Source: Acutalibacter sp. 1XD8-33
GTDB taxonomy: Bacteria > Bacillota > Clostridia > Oscillospirales > Acutalibacteraceae
Assembly (NCBI RefSeq): GCF_003612555.1
Contig: NZ_RAZF01000011.1
Span: 1-64,000 of the forward strand
Direction of reading: 5' to 3'
Length of the DNA stretch: 64,000 bases
In this document: positions 1 through 63,370 of the stretch, piece after piece
How the letters are laid out: each line of letters opens with the position of its first letter
How positions within the stretch are numbered: the first letter of the stretch is position 1
The notes under the pieces: generated by a model
The model's input: only the letters and a program-made list of their open reading frames with translations
The model's database searches: none
Told to the model about the DNA's origin: nothing
Made by a program: the position numbers and the translations under genes

Positions 1-300
1 GGAGCGTTCTGACCTGACCGAGTCGGCAGACGAGACCAGCTGAGACTCAACGCCCTCAAGGTCTTGCCCTTAAACACCTGAGAAGCGTATTTTTGCCAGG
101 GTGGTGAATAATAGGTTAACACTCGCTGCGCTCGGTTAACTATCCGAGTTTTGCAAAGCAAAACTCTTAAGAGGGGACGGAGAGTTCATCTCGCACAGCG
201 AGATGAATCTCTTTTGCAACTGAGAAAAGCGTCCCCTAGTTTCGGAACCATCCAGCGGCTTCCCATCCTGTCTTTCGCCTTTTGCTATCCCCGCGTGTGA
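1..300. repeat. Mosaic palindromic repeat cluster at left edge
   Basis: No gene is seen in this stretch. It consists of modules that recur elsewhere in the window: a GACCGAGTCGGCAGACGAGA block (also near 55,645), a CTCAAGGTCTTGCCCTTAA / ACACCTGAGAAGCG block, a TTAACACTCGCTGCGCTCGG module facing a GAGTTTTGCAAAGCAAAACTC palindrome, and a hairpin made by GAGTTCATCTCGC and GCGAGATGAATC. The order from 1 to about 170 closely matches 55,640-55,810, which shows that this is a composite repeat rather than chance structure. The cluster runs off the left edge of the window. Confidence 0.75.
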
Positions 301-664: not shown

Positions 665-707
665 CTATGTATGAAAACTTTACTGCTCCACCCTCCGGGC
701 AACTGAA

Positions 708-810
708 TCGTTAATGCGGTTCAAAAGAGGTACACCGCCTCTTTTGAACCAAGCGGCGCAGCCGCCCAGCTTGAAAACCAGTATTTACCGATTTTCAAGC
801 GCGTTTACGA
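708..810. repeat. Cloverleaf-like palindromic element, copy A
   Basis: The 103 bp element has inverted termini (TCGTTAATGCG / CGCGTTTACGA) enclosing three hairpins: GGTTCAAAAGAGG with CCTCTTTTGAACC, GCGGC with GCCGC, and CTTGAAAA with TTTTCAAG. The same plan is found at 16,646, 41,954 and 57,909. The right arm overlaps the end of the neighbouring minus-strand phosphodiesterase gene and encodes its final seven residues and stop codon. Confidence 0.8.
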
Positions 811-1741
811 TGACGCATTCCGCCTCCAGCAGCCGGGCATAGGCCTCCTGCCTCTCCCCCTCCGCCTTCGCGGGCAGGATGTTCTCGAAAATGCACAGGC
901 TCCCCAGGTCCTTGGTCCGCCGGTACTCCTCCTCGCTGCGGATGGTCCAGCTCACCTCCTGCATCCCGAACACCCGCTTCACCGCGCCCATGGCCGGAAT
1001 GTCCCGGGCGTGCAGGTCGTAGGCCTCGAAATTGGGCCGGGTGTACCAGTTTGTCAGCAGATTTCTGCCGCAGAAGGCCTCCCAGGCAGTAAGGTTGTCG
1101 TCCCCCTCTTTAAAATGGGCCATCAGCTGGCCACGCACAATCTCCGGGCGGTTCTTCCGGAACCAGCGCACGATCCTGGGGTCGAAGGATTCCACGCAGT
1201 AGAGGCCCTTGTAGCCCTCCAGTTCCTTCATGGCCAGCTGGCAGAGCTCCGCCGGGTCGTTGTAGCCCTTCAGCTCGATAATCAGCGGCGTGGTCCCTCG
1301 AAGCCCCGCCAGCACGTCCCGGAACAGAGGCACAGGCTCCTCGGTGCCGAACAGTCGGTAGGCCCTCAGCTCCTCATAGGTCAGATCCGCGATGGCCTTG
1401 TCCGCCCCACAGCTGCGCTTGATGCTGGCGTCATGGTGCACCACCACCCGCTTGTCCTTGGTGAGCTGCAGGTCAAACTCCATCCCGAAGCCCCCCAGCT
1501 CCGCCAGCCGGAATCCCTTCATGGAGTTCTCCGGCACGCCGTTCTCCAGGTTGTGCAGGCCTCTGTGGGCGTAGTCAAACCGCCGGAACTCCTGGAAGCT
1601 GGGCCTATGGGCGAGCTGGGGCGCGATCAGCCACAGCCAGACCAGCCCGGCCAGGGCCGCGATTCCCAAGAGAACCAGGGCCACTGTGCCCGGCAGGCCC
1701 AGTCCGCTGGTGGATACATCCAGAAAACGAAAAAAATTCAT
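785..1741 (-). CDS. Membrane-anchored glycerophosphodiester phosphodiesterase
   Basis: This 318-residue member of the GDPD/UgpQ family hydrolyses glycerophosphodiesters to glycerol 3-phosphate and an alcohol. A single transmembrane segment (about residues 17-40) anchors the N-terminus, followed by the TIM-barrel catalytic domain. The signature residues are visible: HRG at 59-61, the PEN stretch near 70-72, and the VVHHD catalytic histidine segment near 100-105. Start: ATG with TGGAGG seven bases upstream, behind a good promoter. Oddity: the last residues (VNALENR) and the stop codon lie within a cloverleaf repeat, so the native C-terminus has probably been replaced. Substrate specificity cannot be read from the sequence. 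Confidence 0.88.
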   Translation of the reverse strand: MNFFRFLDVSTSGLGLPGTVALVLLGIAALAGLVWLWLIAPQLAHRPSFQEFRRFDYAHRGLHNLENGVPENSMKGFRLAELGGFGMEFDLQLTKDKRVVVHHDASIKRSCGADKAIADLTYEELRAYRLFGTEEPVPLFRDVLAGLRGTTPLIIELKGYNDPAELCQLAMKELEGYKGLYCVESFDPRIVRWFRKNRPEIVRGQLMAHFKEGDDNLTAWEAFCGRNLLTNWYTRPNFEAYDLHARDIPAMGAVKRVFGMQEVSWTIRSEEEYRRTKDLGSLCIFENILPAKAEGERQEAYARLLEAECVIVNALENR

Positions 1742-7812: not shown

Positions 7813-8145
7813 AGTTTTGAGAGTAATACTGTGTGGCCCCCGCCCCAAGGGGTGCGGCTTCGGCGCTTGGGGGACTCTGGGTCTCGGCTGGTCTCGACTG
7901 CCGACTCGGTCGGCGACGGGAAATTGCCACTGGCGATTGTCGCCCCCCAAAAAACCCACCACTTTTGAAAAAGTGAACAAAACTTTTTCCCTGGTTAACT
8001 GGGTGAGATAAAGCTAAACAAAGTAAAAGTTTTTGATCCACACTTTTCTCAAAAAGTGTGGTCCAGTCCAGGGTGAGAGTTCGTAAGACGAAGTCTCACG
8101 AACTCTTGTCGCCGAAGGCCATCACATGCTCCAATAAAGTATAAG
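7813..8145. repeat. Composite repeat unit with terminal inverted repeats (unit 2)
   Basis: The left end reads GAGAGTAATACTGTGTGGCC (7819-7838) and the right end GGCCATCACATGCTCC (from 8117), inverted relative to each other. The interior holds the GGAAATTGCCACTGGCGATT module, the CACTTTTGAAAAAGTG hairpin followed by the AAACTTTTTCCCTGGTTA block, and a second hairpin CACTTTTCTCAAAAAGTG. No convincing gene is present between trkA and the dipeptidase gene. Confidence 0.65.
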
Positions 8146-16645: not shown

Positions 16646-16751
16646 TATAGTAAACACACTTAAAAATCGGTAGCTACCGATTTTTAAGCTGGGCAGCTAC
16701 GCGCCTGGTTCAAAAGAGGCAGAATACTTCTTTTGAACTGTGTTAACTATA
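16646..16751. repeat. Cloverleaf-like palindromic element, copy B
   Basis: The 106 bp element is bounded by TATAGTAAACAC and GTGTTAACTATA, enclosing the hairpins CTTAAAAATCGGT / ACCGATTTTTAAG and GGTTCAAAAGAGG with a slightly diverged partner TTCTTTTGAACT. The middle hairpin is weak. It lies in the opposite orientation to the copy at 57,909. Confidence 0.8.
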
Positions 16752-18198: not shown

Positions 18199-18262
18199 TA
18201 TAGTTAATTTATTTTAAAAGAATCTTTTGAACTAGGCGGCAGAGCCGCCGAACTTAAGAACC
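18199..18262. repeat. Decayed cloverleaf-like element, copy E
   Basis: TATAGTTAAT, TTTTAAAAGAATCTTTTGAAC, GGCGGC-AGA-GCCGCC and ACTTAAGAACCGG follow the order of the full elements, but the outer arms are diverged and the far end is missing. It supplies the stop codon of the adjacent minus-strand ORF. Confidence 0.5.
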
Positions 18263-19841: not shown

Positions 19842-20534
19842 TTTTATGGGCGCGTGAGTGCGCACATTGGCTAATTGCGGAGCACCACGCCCGGCGGGCG
19901 TTTAGGCTTGGTAGCTGCGCCCAGCGCTGGCTTTCTCCGCATCCACCCCGCTCGGGTTCGTCCTTCGGACGAACCGCCGGAGGAAGCGGGCTTTGCCCGT
20001 TTCCTCGCGGCCATTTTGCGGCTCGCCGCAAAATGCGAGCGGGGCACACCGCGCCAAGCAAGTGCGAGGAATAAGCTAGGTTTCGCGGTAGTGTCAAAAA
20101 GATAAACACTCGCATCGCTCGGTTTATCTTTCCGTTTTGCTTCGCAAAACTCGCCGGGCTGGGTGCTGGATACACGGCGCAGGCTGGTTCTGATTTCCAG
20201 GAAACTTTTTTCTCTTACAAAAAGTTTCCTCTTGGCGCTACGCGCCAATTCATCTTCAAAAAATGCGCTTCTCAGGTGTTAAGGTCAAGGGCAAGACCGT
20301 AGAGGCTCTGCCTCCAAACCACCGCGAGCTTTTGAAGAAAGCTAAGACTTCGCAGAGCGAAGTCTGCAAAACTTTTACGTTGGTTAGCTGAGTGCGCTTG
20401 CACCCAGCTTGGTAGAGTTTTGCGTAGCAAAACTCATGACACATGACGAAACTCAGCTGGCTCATTTCTCCATTCTTGGCGTCATGTGCGACGAACACAG
20501 TGAGGAGTGGGTAAAATGTTTCGTAGACTTCGTT
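19842..20534. repeat. Mosaic palindromic repeat cluster
   Basis: The order is: ATGGGCGCGTGAGTGCGC / GATTGCGGAGCACCA block (to about 19,900); a roughly 100 bp block with nested palindromes (CCCCGCTCGGGTTCG, GGTTCGTCC/GGACGAACC, GCGGGCTTTGCCCG, CATTTTGCGG/CCGCAAAATG, ending GAGCGGGG); a TCGCGGTAGTGTCAAAAAGA block; GAGGAAACTTTTT-type arms; and, from 20,275, a roughly 245 bp stretch almost identical to 60,520-60,820. The right end continues into the coding tail of the RluA-like gene. No convincing gene. Confidence 0.75.
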
Positions 20535-21524
20535 CTACGAAGTCTTACCTTTCTCAAAGGTGGCAGGGGTTTGGGGGTGAGCGTCTGCCGGATACTTGGC
20601 AAAGCCAAGTATTGCAGACAACGCTGCGAACCGACCGAGGCGGTAGCCGAGACAACCCCAAGGTCTTGCCCAGGAAAACGCCTGGGCAAGGTCCTCCGGA
20701 AGGGGGGAGTGAAACTCCCGGCGGAGGCCCAGGGCCCTGCACTCCAGCTCCAGGGAACAGCAGTGCAAGGCCTGCCGGGAAACCAGCTGGAGGCCGCCCC
20801 CGTACAGATCGTCCCCGGCCAGGGGATGGCCCAGCCATGCCATGTGGGCCCGGATCTGGTGGGTGCGGCCGGTCTCCAGCCAGAGGGCCAGGAGGGTGTG
20901 GTCCTCCGCCTGGGCCAGGGCCCGCCAGTGGGTGACGGCGGGCTGGCTTTGGGGGCCGGGGCCGCAGACCCGCAGGATCTTGCTGCCCTCCGCCAGCCCG
21001 ATGGGCGCGTCCACCGTGCCGGAGCCGGAGAGAACCCCTTCGCAGACGGCCAGATAGGTTTTCCTGGTCCGTGCCCCCGCCGCGATCCGGTGCTTGGCAA
21101 TGGCCAGCAGTCCGCTGGTGTCCTTGTCCAGGCGGAAGAGGGGCTTGACGGCGCAGCTCTGGCCGGTGCGCCGGTAGTGCCAGGAGACGGCCTGAAGCAG
21201 GCTGTCCCAGTCGTGGCCGGGGGAGGGGTGCACGGGCATCCCTGAAGCCTTGTCAACGATGAGGAAATCCTCGTCCTCATAGACGACGGCCAGAGGCAGG
21301 TTTTCACAAGGGTAGTCCGCCCCCTCCGGGGGCAGGGAAAGGGCAAGGACGTCCCCGGCCCGCAGGTGCTGGCGCACATGGCAGTCCTGGCCGTTCACCC
21401 GAATGCCCCCCGGAAATTTCTGCCCCGCCAGGGCATGGGCGGAGAGCTCCAGATATCCCCGGGCAAAGGCCTTCACCGTGGCCCCCTCCCATTCCGCCGG
21501 AACCACGTAGCGGAGAATCCTCAC
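20535..21524 (-). CDS. RluA-family pseudouridine synthase with repeat-derived tail
   Basis: The protein (329 residues) converts uridines in ribosomal or transfer RNA to pseudouridine. It has an S4-like N-terminal part, the catalytic motif FRLDKDTSG (Asp133) and LETGRTHQIRAHMAWLGHPL, diagnostic of RluA/RluC/RluD. The start is a GTG overlapping the ispA stop by one base. From about residue 291 on, the frame reads through a mosaic repeat (the ACTTGGCAAAGCCAAGT module), so the last 40 or so residues are probably not original. It is the last gene of the nusB-xseA-xseB-ispA group. Target uridine unknown. Confidence 0.85.
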   Translation of the reverse strand: MRILRYVVPAEWEGATVKAFARGYLELSAHALAGQKFPGGIRVNGQDCHVRQHLRAGDVLALSLPPEGADYPCENLPLAVVYEDEDFLIVDKASGMPVHPSPGHDWDSLLQAVSWHYRRTGQSCAVKPLFRLDKDTSGLLAIAKHRIAAGARTRKTYLAVCEGVLSGSGTVDAPIGLAEGSKILRVCGPGPQSQPAVTHWRALAQAEDHTLLALWLETGRTHQIRAHMAWLGHPLAGDDLYGGGLQLVSRQALHCCSLELECRALGLRREFHSPLPEDLAQAFSWARPWGCLGYRLGRFAALSAILGFAKYPADAHPQTPATFEKGKTS

Positions 21525-22639: not shown

Positions 22640-23320
22640 TGGATTTTTATATGGGGGCTTTCATTGTGCAATAGTCCGGTGGACGGGCGCCAAGGCCGGG
22701 TGGATGTTTCAGCCTAATCTCCGCTGGCCTTTTCCGTGTTCGCTCCGCCCCGCTCGCATTTTGCGGCGAGCCGCAAAATGGCCGTAGGGAAACGGGCAGA
22801 GCCCGTTTCCCCCGGCGGTTCGGCCGAAGGACGAACCCGAGCGGGGCGCCTGAGGCCGAGAATAGTGAGATGAGATGAGCTTCGTCAGTGCGTCAAAAAG
22901 ATAAGCACTCGCGCGGCGAGATGAACTCTCCGCGTCCCCTCTTATAGAGTTTTACTTTGCAAAACTCGGATAGTTAACCGAGCGCAGCGAGTGTTAACCT
23001 ATTATTCACCACCCTGGCAAAAATATGCTTCTCAGGTGTTTAAGGTCAAGGGCAAGACCGTGGAGGCTCTGAGTCTCAGCTGCCGCTTCGGTCGGCGACG
23101 GGAAATCGCCACTGGCGATTTCCCGTCGCCCTCCAAACCACCGCGAGCTTTTGAAGAAGGCTAAGACTTCGCAGAGCGAAGTCTGCAAAACTTTTTACGT
23201 TGGTTAGCTAAGCTAAAAACGTTAATTGTCTGCGACGAACGTAGTGAGGAAGCAGGGTAAAAGTTTCGCCGGCCTTTTCAAAGGCCGCAGGGTGTGGGAC
23301 GGAGTCCCACGACCTTGGGC
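22640..23320. repeat. Mosaic palindromic repeat cluster between xseA and xseB
   Basis: It contains a TATATGGGGGCTTTC-type block, a 100 bp CCCCGCTCGCATTTTGCGG / CCGAGCGGGGC block (22,748-22,852), a GAGTTTTACTTTGCAAAACTC palindrome, the CGAGCGCAGCGAGTGTTAAC block, the GGGAAATCGCCACTGGCGATTTCCC module and the AAGACTTCGCAGAGCGAAGTC hairpin. From about 22,940 to 23,215 it is nearly identical to 60,430-60,690. No gene was found; it interrupts what is normally a continuous operon. Confidence 0.75.
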
Positions 23321-27739: not shown

Positions 27740-28110
27740 AAGGTCGTGGGGCGTTGCCCCACACCCCACAAACTTTTTGAAAAAAGTTTGATCAAAAACT
27801 TTTACCCACTCCTCACTACGTTCGTCGTGAACGATTTATGTTGTTCGACCAGCTAACCTAACAACCGTAAAAGTTTCGCCGGCCTTTTCAAAGGCCGCAG
27901 GGTGTGCCTTAGCAGCGTCCCACGGTCTTGCCCTTGACCTTAACACCTGAGAAGCGCAATTTTTGCGGGGTGAATTGGCGGACGGAGTCTGCCAAGAGGG
28001 GGGCTTTTTGCAAGAATAAAAAGCCCCCCTAGTCCCGGAGCAAGCCAGCTGAGCGCACGGGCGTACCAGCCGAGAGCGCGCCCTGCCAGCTGAAATCTGG
28101 ACGCGCCGCC
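27740..28110. repeat. Mosaic palindromic repeat cluster
   Basis: Modules: GTGGGGCGTTGCCCCAC hairpin, CAAACTTTTTGAAAAAAGTTTG hairpin, ACCCACTCCTCACTACGTTC block, GCCGGCCTTTTCAAAGGCCGC hairpin, GGTCTTGCCCTTGACCTTAA block with ACACCTGAGAAGCG, and a GGGGGGCTTTTT / AAAAAGCCCCCC palindrome. No gene between ilvA and the acetyltransferase. Confidence 0.7.
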
Positions 28111-28178
28111 GCGCCCCGAAGGCCCCCATACAAAAGCAAAAACACTCAAACACTATATAAGCAATGGAGGAAATCAAC

Positions 28179-36858: not shown

Positions 36859-38054
36859 TGGCGAAAAAATTATCCAAACTAGCCCTGCGGCTGCGGTCCA
36901 TGACTGTTTTCCGCAATCTGCTGGAGGATCCGGTAGTTTCCGCTCTGATCCGTTGCCTGGAAAGGACCTCCGGCGGCCCAGAACGGTTTGTGCCGGCCTA
37001 TGGGGAGTTCGTCTCCCGGCTGTACCAGGCGGGATATATAAGCCTCACCGACTACCTGCGGGACCTGGTCTTTGACAGCGACAATGTATACATCCGAATG
37101 ATGGGCGTGGGCAGGCTGCCGGACAAGCTCCTGCTAGACAGCACCATTCTGGACCTGGACACCCTCAGCGACGCCGCCGGCCTGGACGCCGCCCGTCTGC
37201 TGGAAGAGGCCAACTGCAATCTGGCCCTGGCCCGGTTCGAGGGGAAAAAGGTCAACCTCACCAACGAATACGGCGAACGGGCCAAGGAGGTGGGCCGCTA
37301 CGGCTACGGCATCTACTCCCGGAACCGGATGCTCTGTCTGGACGGCAAGGGCCGGGTGGTCCCGGTGCGCTCCCCGGACCCCATCCGCCTCTCCCAGCTC
37401 ATCGACTACCAGCGGGAAAAGGACCTGATCCTGGAAAATACCCGTGCGCTGCTCTCCGGCAAGCCCGCGGCCAACATCCTCCTCACCGGGGACGCGGGCA
37501 CGGGGAAGTCCTCCACCGTGAAGGCTGTGGTGAACGAGCTGTGGGAGGAGGGCCTGCGGATTCTGGAGGTGCGCAAGGAGCAGCTCCACGAGATTCCGGG
37601 AATCCTGGAGGAGCTCACCGAGAACCCCCTGAAATTCATCATCTTCATCGACGACCTGTCCTTTGAGCGGGACGACGACGATTTCAGCGCCCTGAAGGGG
37701 ATGCTGGAGGGCTCGGTCTCCGCCAAATCCGGGAACGTGGCGGTGTACGCCACCAGCAACCGGCGGCATCTTGTGAAAGAGCGCTTCTCCGACCGGGAGG
37801 GGGACGAGGTCCACCGGCGGGACAGCATGCAGGAGGCGGCCTCCCTGGCGGAGCGCTTCGGCCTGCGGATCACCTTCCAGCGGCCGGACAAGAGCACCTA
37901 CCTGAACATCGTGCGCAGTCTGGCCGAAGAGGCGGAGCTGGACCTGCCGGACGAGGAGCTGTGCGCGGGGGCGGAGCGGTTCGCCCTGTCCCGGAGCAGC
38001 CGCTCGGCCCGGGCGGCCCGGCAGTATGTGGACGGGCTCATCGCGAAAAAATAG
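36858..38054 (+). CDS. DUF815 AAA+ ATPase
   Basis: The 398-residue protein is a DUF815-family ATPase: Walker A GDAGTGKSS (about residues 212-220), Walker B FIIFIDDLSFE (about 257-267), and sensor ATSNRRHLVKER. The N-terminal 190 residues are helical and specific to this family. Its role is not known; members occur widely in bacteria. It begins in the ilvD stop codon (TAATGG), so the two are translationally linked, an unusual pairing that may be chance. A terminator follows at once. Confidence 0.85.
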   Translation: MAKKLSKLALRLRSMTVFRNLLEDPVVSALIRCLERTSGGPERFVPAYGEFVSRLYQAGYISLTDYLRDLVFDSDNVYIRMMGVGRLPDKLLLDSTILDLDTLSDAAGLDAARLLEEANCNLALARFEGKKVNLTNEYGERAKEVGRYGYGIYSRNRMLCLDGKGRVVPVRSPDPIRLSQLIDYQREKDLILENTRALLSGKPAANILLTGDAGTGKSSTVKAVVNELWEEGLRILEVRKEQLHEIPGILEELTENPLKFIIFIDDLSFERDDDDFSALKGMLEGSVSAKSGNVAVYATSNRRHLVKERFSDREGDEVHRRDSMQEAASLAERFGLRITFQRPDKSTYLNIVRSLAEEAELDLPDEELCAGAERFALSRSSRSARAARQYVDGLIAKK

Positions 38055-38062
38055 GAAAAAAT

Positions 38063-38096
38063 TGGCGGCGGGGCGCGGGCTCCGCCGCTGTTTTTT
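38063..38096 (+). terminator. Terminator after the DUF815 gene
   Basis: GGCGGCGG and CCGCCGC form a GC-rich stem followed by TGTTTTTT, ten bases after the stop codon. Confidence 0.8.
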
Positions 38097-38099
38097 GCC

Positions 38100-38128
38100 T
38101 TGACTTTCCAGGGCGGCGCGGCTATAAT
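38100..38128 (+). promoter_or_regulatory. Promoter of the SLH surface protein
   Basis: TTGACT (38100-38105) and TATAAT (38123-38128) with a 17-base spacer, about 36 bases before the ATG. Confidence 0.85.
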
Positions 38129-38164
38129 AAATTTACATATAAAAGAAAAACGGAGGCTGAAAAT

Positions 38165-41100
38165 ATGGTTAAAAAATTCGTCAGTCTGCTGCTCTGCGTG
38201 ATTCTCGCCCTGGGCGCTCTGCCCCTTTCGGCGGGGGCGGCAAAGAATCCGGGCGATTCCCATACGATTACGTTTCACTATGAGGACCCCGACGACATCA
38301 ACTCTCGGCTGGTCCTGAACACCTGGGCCGTGAAGGGCTCGGATGAAGAAATATCCGTCAAATTCCATTACAATTTTAATAGGAACTGCTCTGAAAATGA
38401 CAGCTGCGATAGCAGCCAAAGCGCGACGTTTCCTTATAAGAAGAACGGCGCATATGAGAACCCGGCTCTGCCTACTATTTCCGAAACGCTTTATTCCGAT
38501 AAAGTGTTCCTTGGATGGTACACAAATTCCTCTTTCAATGACCGAGGCATAAAGATCTCCAATGACGAGCTGGTTAATCCGGATATCACCCATCTGTACG
38601 CCCAGTATTTTGACAAATCCAGCCTGACAAACAGTTATCTGATTGTTTATAATTATCGGAACGCCACAGGTACTTACTTAGAAGCCATATCCAGTCAGGG
38701 CACAGGGACCAGTGTTCTTCTGCCTGCTCCTACCCGTTCCGGCTATCGGTTCTGCGGCTGGTATGACGACACACTCAAAGGCGCGACAAAATTTGAAGAA
38801 ACCGATGCCAACGGGCTTTCGGCGGGAGAGGTTAAGCAGCTCTATGCCCGGTGGATTCCCGAAAGCAGCAAATTAACGGCTTACTTACCTCAAAATTCCT
38901 CCACTCTCAATATCTCCGTTTCTTACAACCAAACTACATCTCTTCAGGATTTCTGGGATGAAGTGGACCGGCAAAACATTCAAGGACCCAATAGCGAAAT
39001 CATTACTGGCTGGAGTTTCGTGGATAAAGATCAGTCTGCCTATACTGATGCGGATATTGTTCTAAAGAGGCCCGCGGCCAGCACTGCATCCCGTGCCAGA
39101 GCCAATTCCGGCACTATTTTGCAGTTCCTCTGCGACAATGCCGCCTACGCTCCCTTGGAAGTGCACGATGGGAAAGAGGTTCCTGTTCTTTCGCTCTACC
39201 CCGTCTACGGCACTGTCTCCGCCGATACGGTGAAGCTCACCCTGACAGGCAACGGCGGCAAATTCACTTATCAAGGCGTGGATAAAGGAGATAACTTTGA
39301 CATCAATGTTGCCTCTGGCACTACCTTTGGGAACGCTCTTAAGGATGTCACCGCCACCAACACGGACTCTGGCCTCATCCTTAAGGGCTGGAGCACCTCA
39401 TCTACTGGATACGTGCCGGTTGACCTGACCGCTCCCATCAACAGCAGCCAAACCATCTATGCCGTGTGGGGAACGGCGATCACCGTCTCCGTTAACCCCA
39501 ACGGCGGCACATATGATGGATCCGCCCTGCCCAAATCCATAAATATTCCCAGCGGCACCACCTTCGCGGACTTCAAGGCCAACTACCTGAAGCAGGAGCT
39601 TTTGAAACCCGACAACAGCGCTCTTCGGGAATTTTCCAGCTGGTATCTTCGGGATGAGATGTATCCCAACGACGCCACCAAATTCCATATCCTCAAGGAT
39701 AACGACGAGTTCAACCAGGACATTACCATTCACGCGGCCTGGAAAGCGGTCACCACTCCCCCCGCCGACGAGATCATCGTCTCCTTTGACCTGAACTATA
39801 CCGGCGCGCCCGCAGGCCCGGCGGATATCAAAATCGGGGATACCCTGAAATACGGCCAGCTGCCCCAAGTAACCCGCGCCGGCTACAATTTCCTAGGCTG
39901 GTTCGCGGAGAAGAGCGGCGGAACCGAGGCCAAAACCAACGGAAGTCTGGTCAAGCAGGAATCCCACACCCTCTACGCCCACTGGGGCCAGATGGGCTCC
40001 ATCAACCTAAACCCGGACGGTGGCACTCTGGCGGACGGCGAACCCAAGTCCGTGACCCCTGTAGACGGCAAATATCCCGAGCTGCCTGACCCCACTCGCG
40101 CGGGCTACACCTTCCAGGGCTGGTTCACCGCCCAAAAGGACAGCGGCGTGAGGGTAAAAGAGGGCGACGCCGTTTCCCCCGCGGACATCGGGATGATCTA
40201 CGCCCATTGGAAAGCCAACACCTACACCGTTGCCTATGACCTGAACTACACTGGCGCTCCTGCCGCACCCACCGACAAAACCGTCACCTACGACCAGAAA
40301 TACGGCCCTCTTGCCCAGCCCGACCGCTCCGGCTATACTTTCCTGGGCTGGTTCACCCAGCCCTCCGGCGGCCTGGAGGTCAAGGCCGAGGACACGGTGC
40401 AAATCACCCAGAAACAGACGCTCTTCGCCCACTGGCAAGGGGGCGACCCTGTGACCCTGGAGCTCCAGGGCGGAAAGCTCCCCGATGGCGTGAGCGGCAG
40501 AATCGGCGTTACCCCAGGGGGGAAATACCCCACCCTGCCTGTGCCCACCCGCACCGGTTATACCTTTGAGGGCTGGTTCACCAAGGCCGAGGACGGCTCT
40601 CAGGTGGAAAGCGGTGATTCCGTGGGCGAAAAGGCCCCCGAGAAGCTCTACGCCCACTGGACCGCCCGAAAGGTCACCGTAAACTTCGATTACAACGGCG
40701 CTCCTGGCAGCCGAGACCCCAGAACCTACAACTATGGCGCGAAGTATACCAACCTTCCCGCCTCCGCCCGCTGGGACGGCCACACCTTCCTGGGCTGGTT
40801 CACCGCCGCCACCGGCGGAACCCAGATTACCAAAGACAGCACCGTCTCCGTGCCGGAAGGAACGGATGAAACTGAAGGGCTTTCCATCACTTTGTATGCC
40901 CACTGGGGATTCCAGATCAGCTATGAGGCCAACGGCGGTTCCGGCGAAATGGAGAGCAGCACCGCTCCCATGGACTCCCCCTTCACCCTGCCCTCCTGTA
41001 CCTTTACGCCTCCCTATGGCATGGTGTTTGACCGCTGGGCTGTGGGCTCTCTCAAGGGCGAGCACCTGACTGCCGGTGCCACCCACACCTTTAACCGGAA

Positions 41101-41971
41101 CACCACCCTCTATGCTACCTGGAAGGAATCCCCTGTCACCATCACCGCCACCTGTACCTCCGGCGGGTCCCTGATTACCACCACGGGTCAGTCCAACACC
41201 GTCACAGTGGATAAGGGCCAGGACGTGACCTTCAACGCCACCGCCAACTATGGCTATGAGCTGGTGGACCTGATTGTAGACGGCGAAAGCCTCTATGCCC
41301 TGGAGAGCTATACCTTCCGCTCTGTGATGGAGAACCACACCATTCACGCGGTATTCCAGCGGATCGCCCCAGATGATTATATTACCTGCCCCCGGGACTA
41401 CACCTGTCCCCTGAGCCGGTTCAGCGACCTGAATCCCAGAGAATGGTATCATGACGCGGTCCATTACTGCCTGGATGAGGTAATCATGAACGGCGTCTCC
41501 TCCAACCGCTATGGGCCCAATATGCCCACCAGCCGGGCGATGCTCACCATGGCCCTCTGGCGGGCGGAAGGCCGTCCCGACGCGGTAGGAGGCGGTGCCC
41601 TGACCCGCCCCTATAAGGATGTTCCCTCCACGGAATGGTTCTACCGGTGCATTGTCTGGGCAACCCGCACAGGCGTGGTGAACGGCTACAGCGCCACGGC
41701 TTTTGGCCCCAACGACAATATCACCCGGGAACAGGTGGTCACCATCCTGTGGCGGCACGCGGGCTCCCCTGCCCCCCGGTCCTATAACCTCCCCTTCTAT
41801 GACGACTGGGCCACCAGCAGCTATGCCTGGAACGCTATGTGCTGGGCCTATGAGAACGGCATCATCAAGGGCCGGCCGAACCGCATTCTGGATCCCAGGG
41901 GAAATGCCAAGCGGGTGGAGATCGCGGAGATCATGAAGAATTACCTGCTCAACTATAGTAAACGCACTTAA
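38165..41971 (+). CDS. SLH-anchored surface protein with InlB-type repeats
   Basis: The 1268-residue secreted protein has a signal peptide (MVKKFVSLLLCVILALGA, cleavage near GAA/KNP), then about ten InlB B-type repeats ending in patterns such as GYTFLGWFT ... LYAHW (about residues 80-1060), and three SLH domains (about 1085-1260; SDLNPREWYHDAV, KDVPSTEWFYRCI, YAWNAMCWAYENG) that bind cell-wall polymer. The role is probably adhesion or surface structure. The first third has lower GC than the rest, which suggests a mosaic origin. The last residues (YSKRT) and stop codon lie in a cloverleaf repeat. CGGAGG precedes the ATG, behind a consensus promoter. Confidence 0.88.
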   Translation: MVKKFVSLLLCVILALGALPLSAGAAKNPGDSHTITFHYEDPDDINSRLVLNTWAVKGSDEEISVKFHYNFNRNCSENDSCDSSQSATFPYKKNGAYENPALPTISETLYSDKVFLGWYTNSSFNDRGIKISNDELVNPDITHLYAQYFDKSSLTNSYLIVYNYRNATGTYLEAISSQGTGTSVLLPAPTRSGYRFCGWYDDTLKGATKFEETDANGLSAGEVKQLYARWIPESSKLTAYLPQNSSTLNISVSYNQTTSLQDFWDEVDRQNIQGPNSEIITGWSFVDKDQSAYTDADIVLKRPAASTASRARANSGTILQFLCDNAAYAPLEVHDGKEVPVLSLYPVYGTVSADTVKLTLTGNGGKFTYQGVDKGDNFDINVASGTTFGNALKDVTATNTDSGLILKGWSTSSTGYVPVDLTAPINSSQTIYAVWGTAITVSVNPNGGTYDGSALPKSINIPSGTTFADFKANYLKQELLKPDNSALREFSSWYLRDEMYPNDATKFHILKDNDEFNQDITIHAAWKAVTTPPADEIIVSFDLNYTGAPAGPADIKIGDTLKYGQLPQVTRAGYNFLGWFAEKSGGTEAKTNGSLVKQESHTLYAHWGQMGSINLNPDGGTLADGEPKSVTPVDGKYPELPDPTRAGYTFQGWFTAQKDSGVRVKEGDAVSPADIGMIYAHWKANTYTVAYDLNYTGAPAAPTDKTVTYDQKYGPLAQPDRSGYTFLGWFTQPSGGLEVKAEDTVQITQKQTLFAHWQGGDPVTLELQGGKLPDGVSGRIGVTPGGKYPTLPVPTRTGYTFEGWFTKAEDGSQVESGDSVGEKAPEKLYAHWTARKVTVNFDYNGAPGSRDPRTYNYGAKYTNLPASARWDGHTFLGWFTAATGGTQITKDSTVSVPEGTDETEGLSITLYAHWGFQISYEANGGSGEMESSTAPMDSPFTLPSCTFTPPYGMVFDRWAVGSLKGEHLTAGATHTFNRNTTLYATWKESPVTITATCTSGGSLITTTGQSNTVTVDKGQDVTFNATANYGYELVDLIVDGESLYALESYTFRSVMENHTIHAVFQRIAPDDYITCPRDYTCPLSRFSDLNPREWYHDAVHYCLDEVIMNGVSSNRYGPNMPTSRAMLTMALWRAEGRPDAVGGGALTRPYKDVPSTEWFYRCIVWATRTGVVNGYSATAFGPNDNITREQVVTILWRHAGSPAPRSYNLPFYDDWATSSYAWNAMCWAYENGIIKGRPNRILDPRGNAKRVEIAEIMKNYLLNYSKRT

Positions 41972-42060
41972 AAATCGGTATATACTGATTTTTAAGTTGG
42001 ACTGCTACGCCGCCTAGTTCAAAAGAGGTCAAATACCTCTTTTGAACCGCGTTAACTATG
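41954..42060. repeat. Cloverleaf-like palindromic element, copy C
   Basis: TATAGTAAACGC and GCGTTAACTAT termini enclose CTTAAAAATC / GATTTTTAAG and GTTCAAAAGAGG / CCTCTTTTGAAC hairpins; the central arm is reduced. The first 18 bases are coding for the surface protein. Confidence 0.8.
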
Positions 42061-42129: not shown

Positions 42130-42890
42130 CTTTGGATTTTTTGAATATGGGCGCGTGAGTGCGCGCGCTGGCCGATTGCAGAGCACCAAGTCCCGGCAAG
42201 CGCTGAGGCCCGGCGGCGGCGCACGCCAACAGAACGGGCGCGAAACGGGTAAAAGTTTTGCAGACTTCGCTCTGCGAAGTCTTAGCTTTCTTCAAAAGCT
42301 CGCGGTGGTTTGGAGGGCGACAATCGCCAGTGGCGATTTCCCGTCACCGACCGAAGCGGCAGCTGAGACTCAGAGCCTCCAAGGTCTTGACCTTAAACAC
42401 CTGAGAAGCGCATTTTTTGAAGGTGAATTGGCGCATAGCGCCAAGAGGAAACTTTTTGCAAGAGAAAAAAGTTTCCTGGAAACCGGAAGCACCCAGTGCT
42501 ATATAGCTTTCGTTCGCTTCGCATTTGCGAAGCGAAACAGGGGACCCCCGACGAGGGTCCCCTACGCAAAACGTCCCACCGGGACGTTTATGCTACCCTC
42601 CTGCGTTGTTTTCTCAGGTGTTAAGGGCAAGGGCAAGACCATGGGACTCTGTCCCACACCCTGCGAGGCTTTTGAAAAAGCTCGACCAAAACTTTTACGG
42701 TTGTTAGGTTAGCTTGTCAAAAGCAGTAAAAGTTTGTGGGGTTTGGGGGTGAGCGTTCTGCCGGATACTTGGCAAAGCCAAGTATTGCAGACAACGCTGC
42801 GAACCGACCGAGCCGGGGATGCTCCCCGGTGGGGAGCGTTCTGACCCGACCGAGTCGGCAGACGAGACCAGGCGAAACCGGAGTCCCCAA
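42130..42890. repeat. Mosaic palindromic repeat cluster
   Basis: The order is ATATGGGCGCGTGAGTGCGC block, AAGTCTTAGCTTTC block with GACTTCGCTCTGCGAAGTC, the TCGCCAGTGGCGATTTCCCG module, the ACACCTGAGAAGCGC block, GAGGAAACTTTTTGC with its partner, then from 42,538 the GGGGACCCCCGACGAGGGTC hairpin, AAACGTCCCACCGGGACGTTT hairpin, a CTGTCCCACACCCTGC block, and from 42,748 the ACTTGGCAAAGCCAAGT / CGACCGAGCC module followed by a second GACCGAGTCGGC block. No gene. Confidence 0.75.
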
Positions 42891-42894
42891 GGTC

Positions 42895-43782
42895 TTAGGG
42901 GAAGTGCGCGGTGAGCACCAGCTTACCGTCCTTATACTCGGCGGTGAGGGTGCCGTCCATACGCTCGGCCAGAGCCCTGGCGATGGACAGCCCCAGGCCC
43001 GTGGACTTCCGCGCCGCCTCCACCGTATAGAAGCGGTCGAAGAGCCTCTCCACCTCTACAGTGGTCAGGGCCCGACAGCGGTTGGCGAAGATCACCTTCC
43101 CATCCCCGGTGAGGGTCACCTCTAGGTCGCCGGAGCTATACTTCACCGCGTTGCTCAGCAGGTTGGAGAAGATCCGGGAGAGCGCCGCCCGGTCCAGCCT
43201 GCGCACCACCTTCTCCTCGGGTATCTCCACCTGGGGCATAATCCCCGCGCCGGTGAGGTTGGTGTAGGCCGCCGCCAAGCTGGATTCCAGCGCCCCGTTC
43301 AGGCACAGCTCCTCCCGGTTTAGGCCCCCAGGGTCCGAGAGCACCACGCAGTAGCGGAACAGCTCCTCGCTGAGTTGCCGGAGCAACTCCGCCCGGCCCT
43401 GGATGATCCCTAGATACTCCCTGGCCTGCCCGGAGACGTCCTCCTGTTCCAGCAGCTCCAGATATCCGCAAATGGCGGTGAGGGGCGTGCGCAGGTCGTG
43501 GGAGATGTTGGTCACCGCTGCCTTCAGCTCCAGGTCTCCCTGCTGGTAGCGCAGGCGCTGGGCCCGCAGCCGCCCCAGCTCCCCGTTGATCCGGGAGGCC
43601 AGCCGGCGCATGTCTCGGTCCCGGGTGGAGATGTCGATGAGGGTGTTGGTGTCCGCCCGGAGCTTTTCCCGAAGGCCCTCCTCCAGCTCCCGCGCGGCCC
43701 TGCGCATGAGATAGATTTTCCCGGCCAGCAGCAGGACCGCCGCCCCCATCGCCCCAATCAGGCTCCACCACAGGATTTCCAT
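42895..43782 (-). CDS. Sensor histidine kinase
   Basis: The 295-residue kinase has one N-terminal transmembrane helix (about residues 5-25) and no sizeable extracellular part. A short linker leads to the dimerisation/phosphoacceptor domain with NISHDLRTPLTAICGYL (His near 94) and an ATPase domain with IFSNLLSNAVKYS and STGLGLSIA. This intramembrane-sensing layout is typical of kinases linked to ABC exporters that detect peptide antibiotics. AAGGAGG precedes the ATG. It probably pairs with the response regulator at 48.5 kb; permeases and repeats lie between them. Confidence 0.9.
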   Translation of the reverse strand: MEILWWSLIGAMGAAVLLLAGKIYLMRRAARELEEGLREKLRADTNTLIDISTRDRDMRRLASRINGELGRLRAQRLRYQQGDLELKAAVTNISHDLRTPLTAICGYLELLEQEDVSGQAREYLGIIQGRAELLRQLSEELFRYCVVLSDPGGLNREELCLNGALESSLAAAYTNLTGAGIMPQVEIPEEKVVRRLDRAALSRIFSNLLSNAVKYSSGDLEVTLTGDGKVIFANRCRALTTVEVERLFDRFYTVEAARKSTGLGLSIARALAERMDGTLTAEYKDGKLVLTAHFP

Positions 43783-51052: not shown

Positions 51053-51104
51053 TTATCCCACTGCCACTTTTGCGCTCTGTCCAAAGCGCATGTTTGGGGA
51101 CGAC

Positions 51105-51345
51105 GTTTTGCCCTCCGGCGGCTCAGGGGCTCCGCCCCTAAGAACCCCGCCACTTTTGAAAAAGTGGACAAAACTTTTGCCCTGGTTAGCTTGGAACGCT
51201 ACAGTTAACAACATTGACCGGTCCAGCTGGTCTTAAGCTGGCGGGGGTGTGGGGCGCGGAGCCCCACGGTCTTGCCGTAGGGGTGAGCGTGTGCCTGTGG
51301 CACACAAGCTGCGAACCGACCGAGCCGGTAGGCGAGACCCGTGAC
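51105..51345. repeat. Mosaic palindromic repeat cluster before proS
   Basis: GGCTCAGGGGCTCCGCCCC hairpin, CACTTTTGAAAAAGTG hairpin with ACAAAACTTTTGCCCTGGTT block, GGGGCGCGGAGCCCC hairpin with the ACGGTCTTGCCGTAG block, and a variant of the GTGAGCG ... CTGCGAACCGACCGAGCC module. No gene. Confidence 0.7.
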
Positions 51346-51415
51346 CTGTACGCCCGGAGGCCTCCCATTCCTTCAAAAAACACGCGTTCTGGACACTCCC
51401 GTCCACAAAAACACC

Positions 51416-55351: not shown

Positions 55352-55489
55352 TTATTGATTTCGGGTCTGTAATCCTATGATATTTCTTGTTAAGAATTAT
55401 AATTTCCGCCTGACTGTGTATACTTTAGGGGTAGAGGGCGTGAAAATGTCGTCTTGCCCGCATTTTTTTGGGGACGCACCCAGCTAACC

Positions 55490-56070
55490 AGGGAAAAAGT
55501 TTTGCAGACTTCGCTCTGCGAAGTCTTAGCTTTCTTCAAAAGCTCGTGGGAGTTTGAGGGGTGAGCGTTCTGCCGGATACTTGGCAAAGCCAAGTATTGC
55601 AGACAATGCTGCAAACCGACCAAAGCGGGGAAGCTCCCCAGTGGGGAGCGTTCTGACCCGACCGAGTCGGCAGACGAGACCAGCTAAGACTCAGAGCCTC
55701 CAAGGTCTTATCTCTTGACCTCAACACCTGAGAAGCGCATTTTGGGTGTGTGAATAATAAGTTAACACTCGCTCTGCTCGGTTAACTATCCGAGTTTTGC
55801 AAAGCAAAACTCTTGCAAGAGGCCCCTTTTTGCAAGAGAAAAAGGGGCCTGGAAACCGGAACCCGCCAGCTTTGTACTGTGTGTTGTTTTTATATGGGCG
55901 CGTGAGTGCGCGCACTGGCTGATTGCGGAGCACAGGGCCAGGCGGGCCTTTCGGCTGATTCCATGCGCACAGAGCTGGCTGAGAGCACATCTAGGGAAAC
56001 CCCCGGCGAGGGGTTCCCTCTGAAAGTCTCCACCGGAGACTTTCATTCACCCTTCCTGCGCAGTTTCCCA
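55490..56070. repeat. Mosaic palindromic repeat cluster
   Basis: AGACTTCGCTCTGCGAAGTC hairpin, ACTTGGCAAAGCCAAGT module, GGGGAAGCTCCCCAGTGGGG arms with the GACCGAGTCGGC block, the ACACCTGAGAAGCGCATTTT block, GTTAACACTCGCTCTGCTCG, GAGTTTTGCAAAGCAAAACTC, an AGAGGCCCCTTTTTG / AAAAAGGGGCCT palindrome, the ATATGGGCGCGTGAGTGCGC block (55,888-55,950), GGGAAACCCCCGGCGAGG and GAAAGTCTCCACCGGAGACTTTC hairpins. No gene. Confidence 0.75.
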
Positions 56071-57758: not shown

Positions 57759-57908
57759 CGCCCAGGCCGCCGTGGCCTCCCCGCTTGGTTAAAAGAAGTG
57801 TTTTCTTGACAGTATTATAGGAAATAGAAGCGGTACATGAATGAACCTTTTCATGCACCACTTCTGCTTTTTTGCAGCCCCTTTGTCCTTGCTGAACTGC
57901 CGGCGGAT

Positions 57909-58023
57909 TATAGTAAACGCAGTTCAAAAGAGGTATCCCTCTTTTGAACCAGGCGGCGCAACAACTGCTGTGCCGCCCAGCTTGAAAATCGGTATATACC
58001 GATTTTCAAGTGCGTTTACTATA
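57909..58023. repeat. Cloverleaf-like palindromic element, copy D (best preserved)
   Basis: The 115 bp element has near-perfect termini TATAGTAAACGCA / TGCGTTTACTATA. Inside are three consecutive hairpins: GTTCAAAAGAGG-TATC-CCTCTTTTGAAC, GGCGGC...GCCGCC, and CTTGAAAATCGGTA-TACCGATTTTCAAG. Together with the paired ends they fold on paper into a cloverleaf with a four-way junction. It lies between two converging genes and does not touch their coding parts. Confidence 0.85.
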
Positions 58024-58087
58024 GGCCCCCTGTCCTTACGAGCTGTTTGGCGGCCGGCAATGTCCAGCGGTCGGACCAGCTCTTTTC

Positions 58088-58603
58088 CTACGCCGAAAGG
58101 GCTCTTTTATGCTTTATCAACGTATATTCATACCCATCACGGGGCCGGGTGTGCCTCTCAATAGCGTACTGTCGGAACCCGGCCTTGGCCGCCAGCGCCC
58201 GGGAAGCGGCGTTCTCCTCCCAAGCCGAGTAGACAAACTCCCTGGCCCCCAGCTTCCAGGCATGGCCCAAAAGGCAGTTCAGCACCTGGGTTCCATATCC
58301 CCTGCCCCAGAAATCCGGCCCCAGACAGATCCCGGTCTCCTCCCAGGTATCCCCTTCTAGCCGGGCAATTCCCCCGAAGCCCATAGCCTCACCGGTGGAC
58401 TTTTGGAATATGGTATAGGCTGTCTCCCGTTCCGCCTGGAACGCAATGGTCCGGCGCATCCGCTCTTGGGCCTCCTCAGCGCTGGGGCTGGGCTCCAGCA
58501 TCATATAGCGGAAGCTCTCCGGGCGGCTCCACACGTTGCAGTACATGGGCTCCCAGTCCTCAAATTTCGCTTTTCTCAAAATCAAATCCTTTGTCTCCAG
58601 CAT
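58088..58603 (-). CDS. RimJ/RimL-type GNAT acetyltransferase
   Basis: The 171-residue protein is an N-acetyltransferase of the RimJ/RimL group: LILRKAKFEDWEPMY near the start, ICLGPDFWGRGYGTQVLN for acetyl-CoA binding, and AWEENAASRALAAKAGFR. The acceptor may be a ribosomal protein or small amine; it cannot be decided. The ATG at 58603 lies behind AGGAGGTCAAC; the 70-residue longer reading goes through repeat sequence and is rejected. It stands alone, upstream of nothing on this strand but a cloverleaf element. Confidence 0.85.
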   Translation of the reverse strand: MLETKDLILRKAKFEDWEPMYCNVWSRPESFRYMMLEPSPSAEEAQERMRRTIAFQAERETAYTIFQKSTGEAMGFGGIARLEGDTWEETGICLGPDFWGRGYGTQVLNCLLGHAWKLGAREFVYSAWEENAASRALAAKAGFRQYAIERHTRPRDGYEYTLIKHKRALSA

Positions 58604-58639
58604 CGTTGACCTCCTGTCAAAAATGGATGGTTTGGGATG

Positions 58640-59335
58640 ATATTGTGGCTGCCGGCGGCTGGGGGCTCTGAGTCTCACCTGCCGGTTCGGTCGGCGACGG
58701 GAAATCGCCACTGGCGATTGTCGCCCCCCGTCCCCCGCCACTTTTGAAAAAGTGGACAAAACTTTTACCCTGGACAGCATTGACCGGTCCAGCTGTAAAC
58801 TTGGCAACGCCAAGTTTTGCAGACAACGCCACGAACCGACCGAGTCGGCAGACGAGACCAGGCGAGACTCGCGCAGCCCTCAAGGTCTTGCCCTTGACCT
58901 TAAACTCCTCAGAAGCGCAATTTTGAAGGTGAATTGACGCGCAGCGTCAAGAGGAAACGGAGAGTTCATCTCGCCCTGCGAGATGAATCTCTTTTGCAAC
59001 TGAGAAAAAGTTTCCTAGTCTCGGAGTAAACCAGCGGAGAACGTTCGCACCCAGCCCGGCGAGTTTTGCTTTGCAAAACTCATGACGCCTGACGAAGCTC
59101 AGCTATATCATCGCTCCATTCTTCGCGTCAGGCACCCCGCTCGGGTTCGTCCGAAGAACGAACCGCCGGGAGAAACGGGCAGAGCCCGTTTCTCCCGCAG
59201 CCATTTTGCGGCTCGCCGCAAAATGCGAACGGGGCGGACGCGGGAAAGACTAGCTGAGCGCACGAGCGTACCAGCCGGGAGCGCTCCTTGCCAGCTGGAA
59301 TCTGGATGCGCCACCGCTCCATGCGAGCCCCTTAA
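58640..59335. repeat. Mosaic palindromic repeat cluster
   Basis: GGGAAATCGCCACTGGCGATT module, CACTTTTGAAAAAGTG with the ACAAAACTTTTACCCTGG block, ACTTGGCAACGCCAAGT with the CGAACCGACCGAGTCGGC block, AACTCCTCAGAAGCGC, GAGTTCATCTCGC / GCGAGATGAATC, GAGTTTTGCTTTGCAAAACTC, and the 100 bp CCCCGCTCGGGTTCG / AATGCGAACGGGG block (59,140-59,240), then a GAGCGTACCAGCCGGGAGCG block. No gene. Confidence 0.75.
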
Positions 59336-60194: not shown

Positions 60195-60879
60195 TGTTTT
60201 TATGGGGGCCTGCTGGGCGCAATGGCTCGTCCAGATTCCAGCACACCGCGCCTAGTATGTGCGAGGCGGAAGCTGGATTTCGCGGTGTGTCATGAGTTTT
60301 GCTATGCAAAACTCTGCCAAGTCTGGTACGCCCGTGCGCTCAGATGGCGGGTTCCGATTTCCAGGAGACGCTTTTTTTCAGTTGTAAAAGAGTTTCATCT
60401 TGTTCCACAAGATGAACTCTCCGCGTCCCCTCTTAAGAGTTTTGCTTTGCAAAACTCGGATAGTTAACCGAGCGCAGCGAGTGTTAACCTATTATTCACC
60501 ACCCTGGCAAAAATATGCTTCTCAGGTGTTTAAGGTCAAGGGCAAGACCGTGGAGGCTCTGAGTCTCAGCTGCCGCTTCGGTCGGCGACGGGAAATCGCC
60601 ACTGGCGATTGTCGCCCTCCAAACCACCGCGAGCTTTTGAAGAAAGCTAAGACTTCGCAGAGCGAAGTCTGCAAAACTTTTACGTTGGTTAGCTGAGTGC
60701 GCTTGCACCCAGCTTGGTAGAGTTTTGCGTAGCAAAACTCATGACACATGACGAAACTCAGCTGGCTCATTTCTCCATTCTTGGCGTCATGTGCGACGAA
60801 CACAGTGAGGAGTGGGTAAAAGTTTCGTCAACCTTTTCAAAGGTTGCAGGGTGTGGGACAGCGTCCCACGACCTTGACC
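60195..60879. repeat. Mosaic palindromic repeat cluster
   Basis: It contains TTTTTATGGGGGCC block, GAGTTTTGCTATGCAAAACTC, GAGTTTCATCTTGTTCCACAAG, GAGTTTTGCTTTGCAAAACTC, and then a roughly 390 bp run (60,430-60,820) that matches 22,940-23,215 in its first two thirds and 20,310-20,520 in its last third. It therefore joins two other composites end to end. It ends with CAACCTTTTCAAAGGTTG and GTGGGACAGCGTCCCAC hairpins before the mannosidase stop codon. No gene. Confidence 0.75.
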
Positions 60880-62934: not shown

Positions 62935-62984
62935 GGATTTTTTCTCCTTGAAGATAGTAAATTTTAGTTTTTTCGCAAAGCTGA

Positions 62985-63370
62985 CCAGGGTAAAAGTTTC
63001 GCCGGCCTTTTCAAAGGCCGCAGGGGTTTGGGGACGGCGTCCCCAAGGTCTTGCCTTTGAACACCTGAGAAAACAACGCAGGAGGGTAGCATAAACGTCC
63101 CGGTGGGACGTTTTGCGTAGGGGACCCTCGTCGGGGGGCGCTGGTCTCCGCTGGAGACCGTCAAGCGCCGACCGAGCCGGCAGGCGAGACCCCCTGTTTC
63201 GCTTTGCGAACTCTCCCACACCACGCAACCTTTGAAAAGGTTGACGAAACTTTTACGGTTGTTCGGTTAGCTCGGCAAACGACATAAAGTGTTCACGACG
63301 AACGAAGTGGGAGTGACGTTCGCGGTCCAGGGGCGTTAGGCCCCTGGTGGGGTTTGGGGCAAAGCCCCAA
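62985..63370. repeat. Mosaic palindromic repeat cluster with nested module
   Basis: GCCGGCCTTTTCAAAGGCCGC and GGGGACGGCGTCCCC hairpins, ACACCTGAGAAAACAACGC block, AAACGTCCCGGTGGGACGTTT hairpin, GGGGACCCTCGTCGGGG arm interrupted by a roughly 55 bp insert (GGTCTCCGCTGGAGACC and GACCGAGCCGGCAGGC), CAACCTTTGAAAAGGTTG, a TTCACGACGAACGAAGTGG block, and GGGGCGTTAGGCCCC. No gene. Confidence 0.75.

What the first reader, a model, noticed from the sequence alone, without database searches (positions are those of the whole stretch)
57909..58023. Family of cloverleaf-like palindromic elements with TATAGTAAACGC termini
Four full copies (708-810, 16,646-16,751, 41,954-42,060, 57,909-58,023) and one decayed copy (18,199-18,262) share inverted termini and consecutive internal hairpins: a TTCAAAAGAGG arm, a GC-rich arm and a TGAAAATCGGTA arm. 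The loops differ while stems keep pairing, e.g. GAAAATCGGTA/TACCGATTTTC against AAAAATCGGT/ACCGATTTTT, which indicates conserved structure rather than conserved sequence. The copies occur in both orientations. I know of no named element with this four-way design in clostridia; it looks like a non-autonomous mobile element whose folded single strand may be the mobile form.
Basis: seen in the sequence. Interest (0 to 1): 0.75.

Follow-up and report, generated by a model that had tools for sequence, protein, structure and literature searches.

The report
Genus-specific cloverleaf-shaped mini-transposon family
A 105-125 base-pair hitch-hiking DNA element that folds into a four-armed cloverleaf is scattered about 70-90 times through this gut bacterium's genome and only through its genus; it is a new, unusually shaped family of a well-known kind of non-autonomous transposon that inserts at TA dinucleotides.

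Summary
All copies are at the stated places (within 2 bp) and fold as a terminal stem plus three hairpins (z -7 to -12.6). The genome holds at least 72 copies at 60 bits or more; the family occurs in 12 of 29 genomes of the genus (Acutalibacter/Neglectibacter group) and in none of 134 other genera of the family. It is mobile: identical copies sit in unrelated flanks, copies are nested in other repeats, and orthologous empty sites show insertion at TA with a TA duplication. That is the anatomy of a MITE (RUP, ERIC, Correia type) with symmetrical ends, moved in trans by a DDE-type transposase. No transposase with these ends was found: IS630, IS200-type and DDE_Tnp_1 elements of these genomes carry other ends. 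Pairing covaries in all four helices, but this is not proof of a selected RNA. Double changes arise in one step (two copies differ only by one paired change), many are transversions without wobble intermediate, and 54-57-bp derivatives form a series from hybrid to perfect palindrome. DNA-hairpin-templated correction explains this best. 'Folded single strand as mobile form' is unsupported. Verdict: undescribed family, unusual cloverleaf variant of a known kind.

The parts
57909..58023 (+). full copy (115 bp) including the flanking TA on each side
   Evidence: query, which scored 40 places in the own genome; CM 133.9 bits
57909..57920 (+). left terminal inverted repeat TATAGTAAACGC; 5' half of terminal stem; first TA is the presumed target duplication
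57922..57949 (+). hairpin arm 1: GTTCAAAAGAGG-TATC-CCTCTTTTGAAC
   Evidence: fold; covariation
57951..57977 (+). hairpin arm 2: GGCGGCGCA...TGTGCCGCC (GC-rich, length-variable between copies)
   Evidence: fold; alignment
57980..58011 (+). hairpin arm 3: CTTGAAAATCGGTATATACCGATTTTCAAG region
   Evidence: fold; covariation
58012..58023 (+). right terminal inverted repeat GCGTTTACTATA; 3' half of terminal stem; last TA is the presumed target duplication
706..812 (+). full copy, 107 bp, variant outer ends (ATCGTTAATGC...GCGTTTACGAT)
16646..16751 (-). full copy, 106 bp
18199..18262 (+). decayed 5' part of a copy (left end, broken arm 1, arm 2)
41954..42060 (-). full copy, 107 bp; the upstream gene (37961-41971 +) ends inside it, so the element supplies its last codons and its stop

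Best explanation
The element is a MITE: a non-autonomous transposon of about 105-125 bp with 12-bp terminal inverted repeats (imperfectly extending to 25 bp) that inserts at TA and duplicates it. It is moved in trans by a DDE-type transposase, most likely of the IS630/Tc1 kind, which was not found and may be lost or carry diverged ends. Shown: mobility, TA target, symmetrical ends, cloverleaf fold of either strand, genus-only distribution. Inferred: the transposase class. The three hairpins are long palindromes in the DNA. They keep pairing largely because hairpins that form during replication let one arm template the other (quasipalindrome correction), which also produces the shortened and expanded derivatives. 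When transcribed, copies would fold in the RNA, supply stop codons, or alter mRNA ends; this is a side effect until shown otherwise.
For: Copy number: at least 72 places at 60 bits or more in the genome, in both orientations. Recent movement: two identical 116-bp copies in unrelated flanks in one relative. Empty sites: the L022 site reads GGGTTT-TA-[TAG..CTA]-TA-CAATCAGGCC, while the best-matching relative reads GGCTTC-TA-CTATTAGGCC; a divergent copy in a RepA_N gene reads CTA-TA-TGACGA where uninterrupted homologues read GGCTGG-TA-TGACGA; the L023 site is empty in relatives. Nested insertion in another repeat with an empty copy present. Most copies lie between genes. Fold. Templated correction: copies L115 and L231 differ only by one paired T-A to C-G change; the ratio of concerted to single-sided changes does not rise with distance; 5 of 12 concerted changes in close pairs are transversions, as are 14 of 33 double-change types overall; 54-57-bp derivatives range from hybrid (L082, L086, L094) through half-corrected (L093) to perfect palindromes (L090, L091, L092). 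Template switching homogenises inverted-repeat arms elsewhere (PMC8604942, PMC7202029; abstracts).
Against: No transposase with matching ends was found: perfect 16-bp ends give no long convergent pair that encloses a transposase in ten genomes; IS630 copies of the genus end in TA-TTATTCCTGAAAAACG and GGGGGTAA-TA. G-U pairs exceed A-C pairs (123 to 74; 96 to 68 without the inner terminal stem), which hints at some strand-specific RNA-level constraint. In the RepA_N case the left TA has decayed to AA. The terminal stem, whose halves lie about 80 bases apart, also covaries, which simple hairpin correction explains less well.
Confidence: 0.82

Rival explanations
1. The folded single strand is the mobile form: an HUH (Y1/RAYT or relaxase-like) enzyme recognises the hairpins and moves the element as single-stranded DNA, as REP/REPIN or IS200/IS605 elements do.
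For: Strong DNA fold of either strand; Y1 transposases present in 4 of 6 genomes searched.
Against: Symmetrical terminal inverted repeats and a TA on both sides with a single TA in empty sites, whereas Y1 transposition makes no target duplication (established knowledge); Y1 loci do not carry these ends, and the one Y1 gene next to a copy is a separate insertion near the same rep gene; two genomes with many copies (G022, G005) have no Y1 hit.
Confidence: 0.07
2. The copies are a functional structured RNA or mRNA-end element kept by selection (attenuator, RNase target or stability element), with transposition only as its way of spreading.
For: Covariation in all helices; excess of G-U over A-C pairs; a divergent member with largely different arm sequences keeps all four helices.
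Against: Found in convergent, tandem and divergent spacers and inside a rep gene, not at one class of genes; no Rfam match; one-step paired transversions and perfect-palindrome derivatives point to DNA-level correction; both strands fold equally.
Confidence: 0.12
3. Recombination or integration site (attC-like or XerCD-like) rather than a transposon.
For: Imperfect palindromic, length-variable middle arm; folded recombination sites exist (attC, established knowledge).
Against: Dispersed singly at unrelated TA sites, not in cassette arrays; conserved inverted ends and TA duplication.
Confidence: 0.02

Closest known systems
RUP (repeat unit of pneumococcus, 107 bp)
   Same: Size, copy number (about 108-110), intergenic, TA at termini and TA target, inverted ends, transcript folds, nested in other repeats (PMC2229807, PMC3049150).
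   Different: No sequence relation tested or expected; RUP has a proposed partner (IS630-Spn1) with similar ends, here none found; RUP has short ends (9 bp) and no three-hairpin cloverleaf is described for it in the passages read.
Correia/NEMIS elements of Neisseria
   Same: Inverted ends (24 bp), target duplication with TA at the termini, about 107 or 155 bp with an internal length variant, filled/empty sites (PMC2229807).
   Different: Described as a stem-loop formed by 5'-3' pairing; different genus and sequence.
ERIC/IRU (127 bp)
   Same: Target duplication with TA at the termini, palindromic, intergenic, no known transposase (PMC2229807).
   Different: Stem-loop by end pairing rather than a four-way junction; enterobacteria.
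CIR elements of Caulobacter/Brucella
   Same: Several arms in the predicted RNA, unlike most small repeats (PMC2229807).
   Different: No terminal inverted repeat; two arms with a linker; GANTC motif.
REP/REPIN with RAYT
   Same: Palindromic dispersed intergenic repeats.
   Different: No symmetrical long ends and no TA duplication; moved by a Y1 enzyme (established knowledge).

Membership tests
MITE (bacterial miniature inverted-repeat transposable element) | Short (under about 200 bp), non-coding, multi-copy | tested here: met
   104-125 bp typical; at least 72 places at 60 bits or more in the genome
MITE (bacterial miniature inverted-repeat transposable element) | Terminal inverted repeats | tested here: met
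   TATAGTWAACGC at both ends; 60 exact 16-mers in the genome, 0 in the reversed control
MITE (bacterial miniature inverted-repeat transposable element) | Target site duplication shown by filled/empty sites | tested here: met
   TA, (L022 site, empty in three relatives); right side exact in RepA_N gene, left TA decayed
MITE (bacterial miniature inverted-repeat transposable element) | Ends shared with an autonomous element (common but not required; ERIC also lacks a known partner) | tested here: inconclusive
   None found among IS630, Y1 and DDE_Tnp_1 loci or by end-pair search; other transposase families not searched
IS630/Tc1-derived MITE (RUP-like) | TA target duplication | tested here: met
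IS630/Tc1-derived MITE (RUP-like) | Ends match an IS630 element of the same genome | tested here: not met
   IS630 of G000/G022/G005 end in TATTATTCCTGAAAAACG / TATTACCCCCGAACAAG; so it is not filed under IS630, only said to work like one
REP/REPIN or IS200/IS605 (Y1/HUH) | No target duplication, asymmetrical ends | tested here: not met
   Symmetrical ends with TA duplication
Rfam structured RNA family | Match to a curated covariance model | tested here: not met
   No match at gathering score in the window nor up to E=1 for 57800-58150

The most novel reading that the evidence does not exclude
The cloverleaf itself is the working part: the transposase (or another enzyme) recognises the extruded four-way junction in DNA, or the transcript's cloverleaf is a selected regulatory RNA, so that this is a mobile element defined by shape rather than by sequence.
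Probability: 0.1. Interest if true: 0.72.

Novelty: new variant of a known kind. Interest (0 to 1): 0.42.

Why it matters
It adds an undescribed MITE family, confined to one gut-bacterial genus, whose four-way-junction shape differs from the single long stem-loop usual for such repeats. Its many copies and shortened forms are a natural record of template-switch correction: covariation, normally read as proof of a selected RNA fold, can here be largely a mutational product of DNA hairpins. That is a caution for covariation-based RNA discovery in repeats.

Tried and rejected
Autonomous partner by ends: exact-end search in 29 genomes; the 3.17-kb pair in G015:C255 is two ordinary copies around host genes; isolated ends in G000 are decayed or shortened copies or ends of other repeats. 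IS630 gives other ends. Y1_Tnp is not linked except one separate insertion near the same rep gene. DDE_Tnp_1 gives other ends. Viral contigs: no match. Rfam: none. Literature: no paper with all terms for cloverleaf MITE or clostridial MITE, one irrelevant paper for Acutalibacter repeats; the end sequence occurs only in an unrelated malaria paper. The idea that L067/L069 is a separately spreading family was dropped: both are the same insertion in a rep gene carried twice. A count of structure pairs failed on string length and was replaced by a script with shuffles and slid controls.

Full report
Observation. The five places were read directly. Four are full copies, one is a 5' remnant. The copy at 57909-58023 reads TATAGTAAACGC-A-GTTCAAAAGAGG/CCTCTTTTGAAC-CA-GGCGGCGCA/TGTGCCGCC-CA-GCTTGAAAATCGGT/ACCGATTTTCAAGT-GCGTTTACTATA. 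It folds into a terminal stem with three hairpins on either strand, as RNA (z -12.6 and -12.0) and as DNA (z -12.0 and -14.1). The other window copies fold the same way (z -7 to -9).

Copy number and distribution. BLAST with the 115-bp copy scored 40 places in the own genome. The model finds the family in 12 of 29 genomes of the genus and in none of 31 more distant genomes. In a second sample of 250 genomes from 135 genera of the family, only three genomes of the own genus matched. An exact 21-mer scan of one genome per species (84,980 species) hit only records titled Acutalibacter, Neglectibacter or Oscillospiraceae bacterium. That the window's genome belongs to that group is an inference from these titles. 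Viral contigs gave nothing.

Mobility and target. Two identical 116-bp copies lie in unrelated flanks in G027 (L117, L127). Several copies are nested in another dispersed repeat of which an empty copy exists. Joined flanks of 17 copies searched in the genus gave continuous matches. At the L022 site three relatives have the two genes joined without the element; the best-matching one reads GGCTTC-TA-CTATTAGGCC against GGGTTT-TA-[element]-TA-CAATCAGGCC. Insertion at the stop codon gave the upstream gene a new stop. The L023 site is empty in four relatives, though their spacer has diverged. At the L016 site a multi-copy repeat of G005 is uninterrupted with a TA at the junction, give or take two bases. 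A divergent member sits inside a RepA_N gene. Ten uninterrupted homologues read GGCTGGTATGACGA or differ from it by one or two bases; the filled copy reads GGCTGA-ATAG...CTATA-TGACGA, so the right side is exact and the left TA has decayed. TA duplication is therefore the best reading. Most copies lie between genes, in tandem, convergent and divergent spacers (crude ORF calls).

Anatomy of the family. The left end is mostly TATAGTTAACGC and the right TATAGTAAACGC, and the similarity of the two ends extends imperfectly into the arms, so each strand resembles the other (the reverse strand of the window copy still scores 82 bits). Arm 2 varies most in length. Arm 1 can be expanded by extra palindromic units (L113, L200). 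Shortened forms of 33-57 bp exist in several genomes. The divergent rep-gene member keeps the terminal stem and three hairpins with largely different arm sequences.

Covariation and what it means. Over 89 aligned copies, 27 of 41 stem pairs have Watson-Crick double changes, 87 cells against 17 on average and 29 at most in 300 shuffles, and 21-34 in slid controls. So structure is kept while sequence varies. But the way it is kept matters. Between close copies concerted changes appear at once: L115 and L231 differ by a single paired T-A to C-G change and nothing else in 116 bp. The ratio of concerted to one-sided changes does not rise with distance (0.38 at 0-4 differences, 0.11 at 5-9, 0.21-0.34 beyond), whereas sequential mutation and compensation would make it rise. 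Five of 12 concerted changes in close pairs are transversions, which cannot pass through a G-U intermediate. Shortened forms join the apex of one hairpin to that of another, and occur as hybrids, half-corrected forms and perfect 54-57-bp palindromes. This is what replication template switching in quasipalindromes does (PMC8604942, PMC7202029, abstracts). A modest excess of G-U over A-C pairs (123 to 74; 96 to 68 without the inner terminal stem; copies are not independent) leaves room for some RNA-level constraint.

Partner enzyme. None was found. Exact ends in ten genomes form no long convergent pair around a transposase. IS630 elements, which also duplicate TA, are present but have other ends; the Y1 and DDE_Tnp_1 loci examined do not carry these ends either. 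Other transposase families were not searched. The DDE/IS630-like mechanism is therefore an inference from TA duplication and symmetrical ends, as for ERIC, not a demonstrated relation.

Comparison. Small bacterial repeats with inverted ends and TA at the termini are a known class (Correia, ERIC, RUP; PMC2229807), and RUP is thought to be moved by IS630-Spn1 (PMC2229807, PMC3049150). The review states that most of these form a stem-loop by 5'-3' end pairing without arms, CIR being an exception. A terminal stem with three hairpins is thus an unusual variant. No earlier description of this family was found in the open-access library, which does not cover most subscription journals.

Verdict. A real, undescribed MITE family of one genus, with an unusual cloverleaf design. 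The mobile-element reading is well supported; the single-strand mobile form is not; functional structure is possible but not needed to explain the data.

Noticed in passing
window 16-266, 1836-2107, 7815-8142, 20080-20650, 22744-23308, 27740-28135, 42247-42900, 51079-51383, 55475-55874, 58631-59312, 60289-60867, 62966-63315: A second, larger set of dispersed repeats built as a shuffled mosaic of roughly 40-330-bp blocks at 75-95% identity.
   Followed up: no
L026 1300-1463; also L006, L010, L011, L012, L018: A roughly 160-180-bp repeat with inverted ends (CTAAGAAGCTGTACCRATAGG...CCTATYGGTACRGCTTCTTAG) into which the cloverleaf inserted; a further small palindrome (TATACTTTCTGAGAG...CTCTCAAAAAGTATA) is inserted next to it in L011, L012 and L018.
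   Followed up: partly
L066 361-392, L072 256-287, L076 301-332, L077 292-323, L080 2981-3012: A 32-bp palindrome ATAGTTAACGCTCGCTGCGCTCGGTTAACTAT in similar short flanks, sharing the GTTAAC-type end, probably part of another repeat.
   Followed up: no
window 37961-41971: A 1336-aa protein with S-layer homology and InlB-type repeat domains whose last codons and stop are supplied by the cloverleaf copy.
   Followed up: no
L069 (G000:C9:13400-16700) and L067: RepA_N gene interrupted by the divergent cloverleaf in two places of the genome; in one of them a Y1 transposase gene has also inserted just upstream, while the other lacks it.
   Followed up: partly
L007 1501-1615: A copy inserted in the loop of what looks like an intrinsic terminator (GCCCCCTCCGC...GCGGAGGGGGC).
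   Followed up: no
L166, L171, L176, L179, L183, L187, L191 (G022): An IS630 element flanked by TA in over a dozen nearly identical copies in one complete genome, 99% identical in the window's genome (L165) and in G005 (L180), so recently spread between species.
   Followed up: partly
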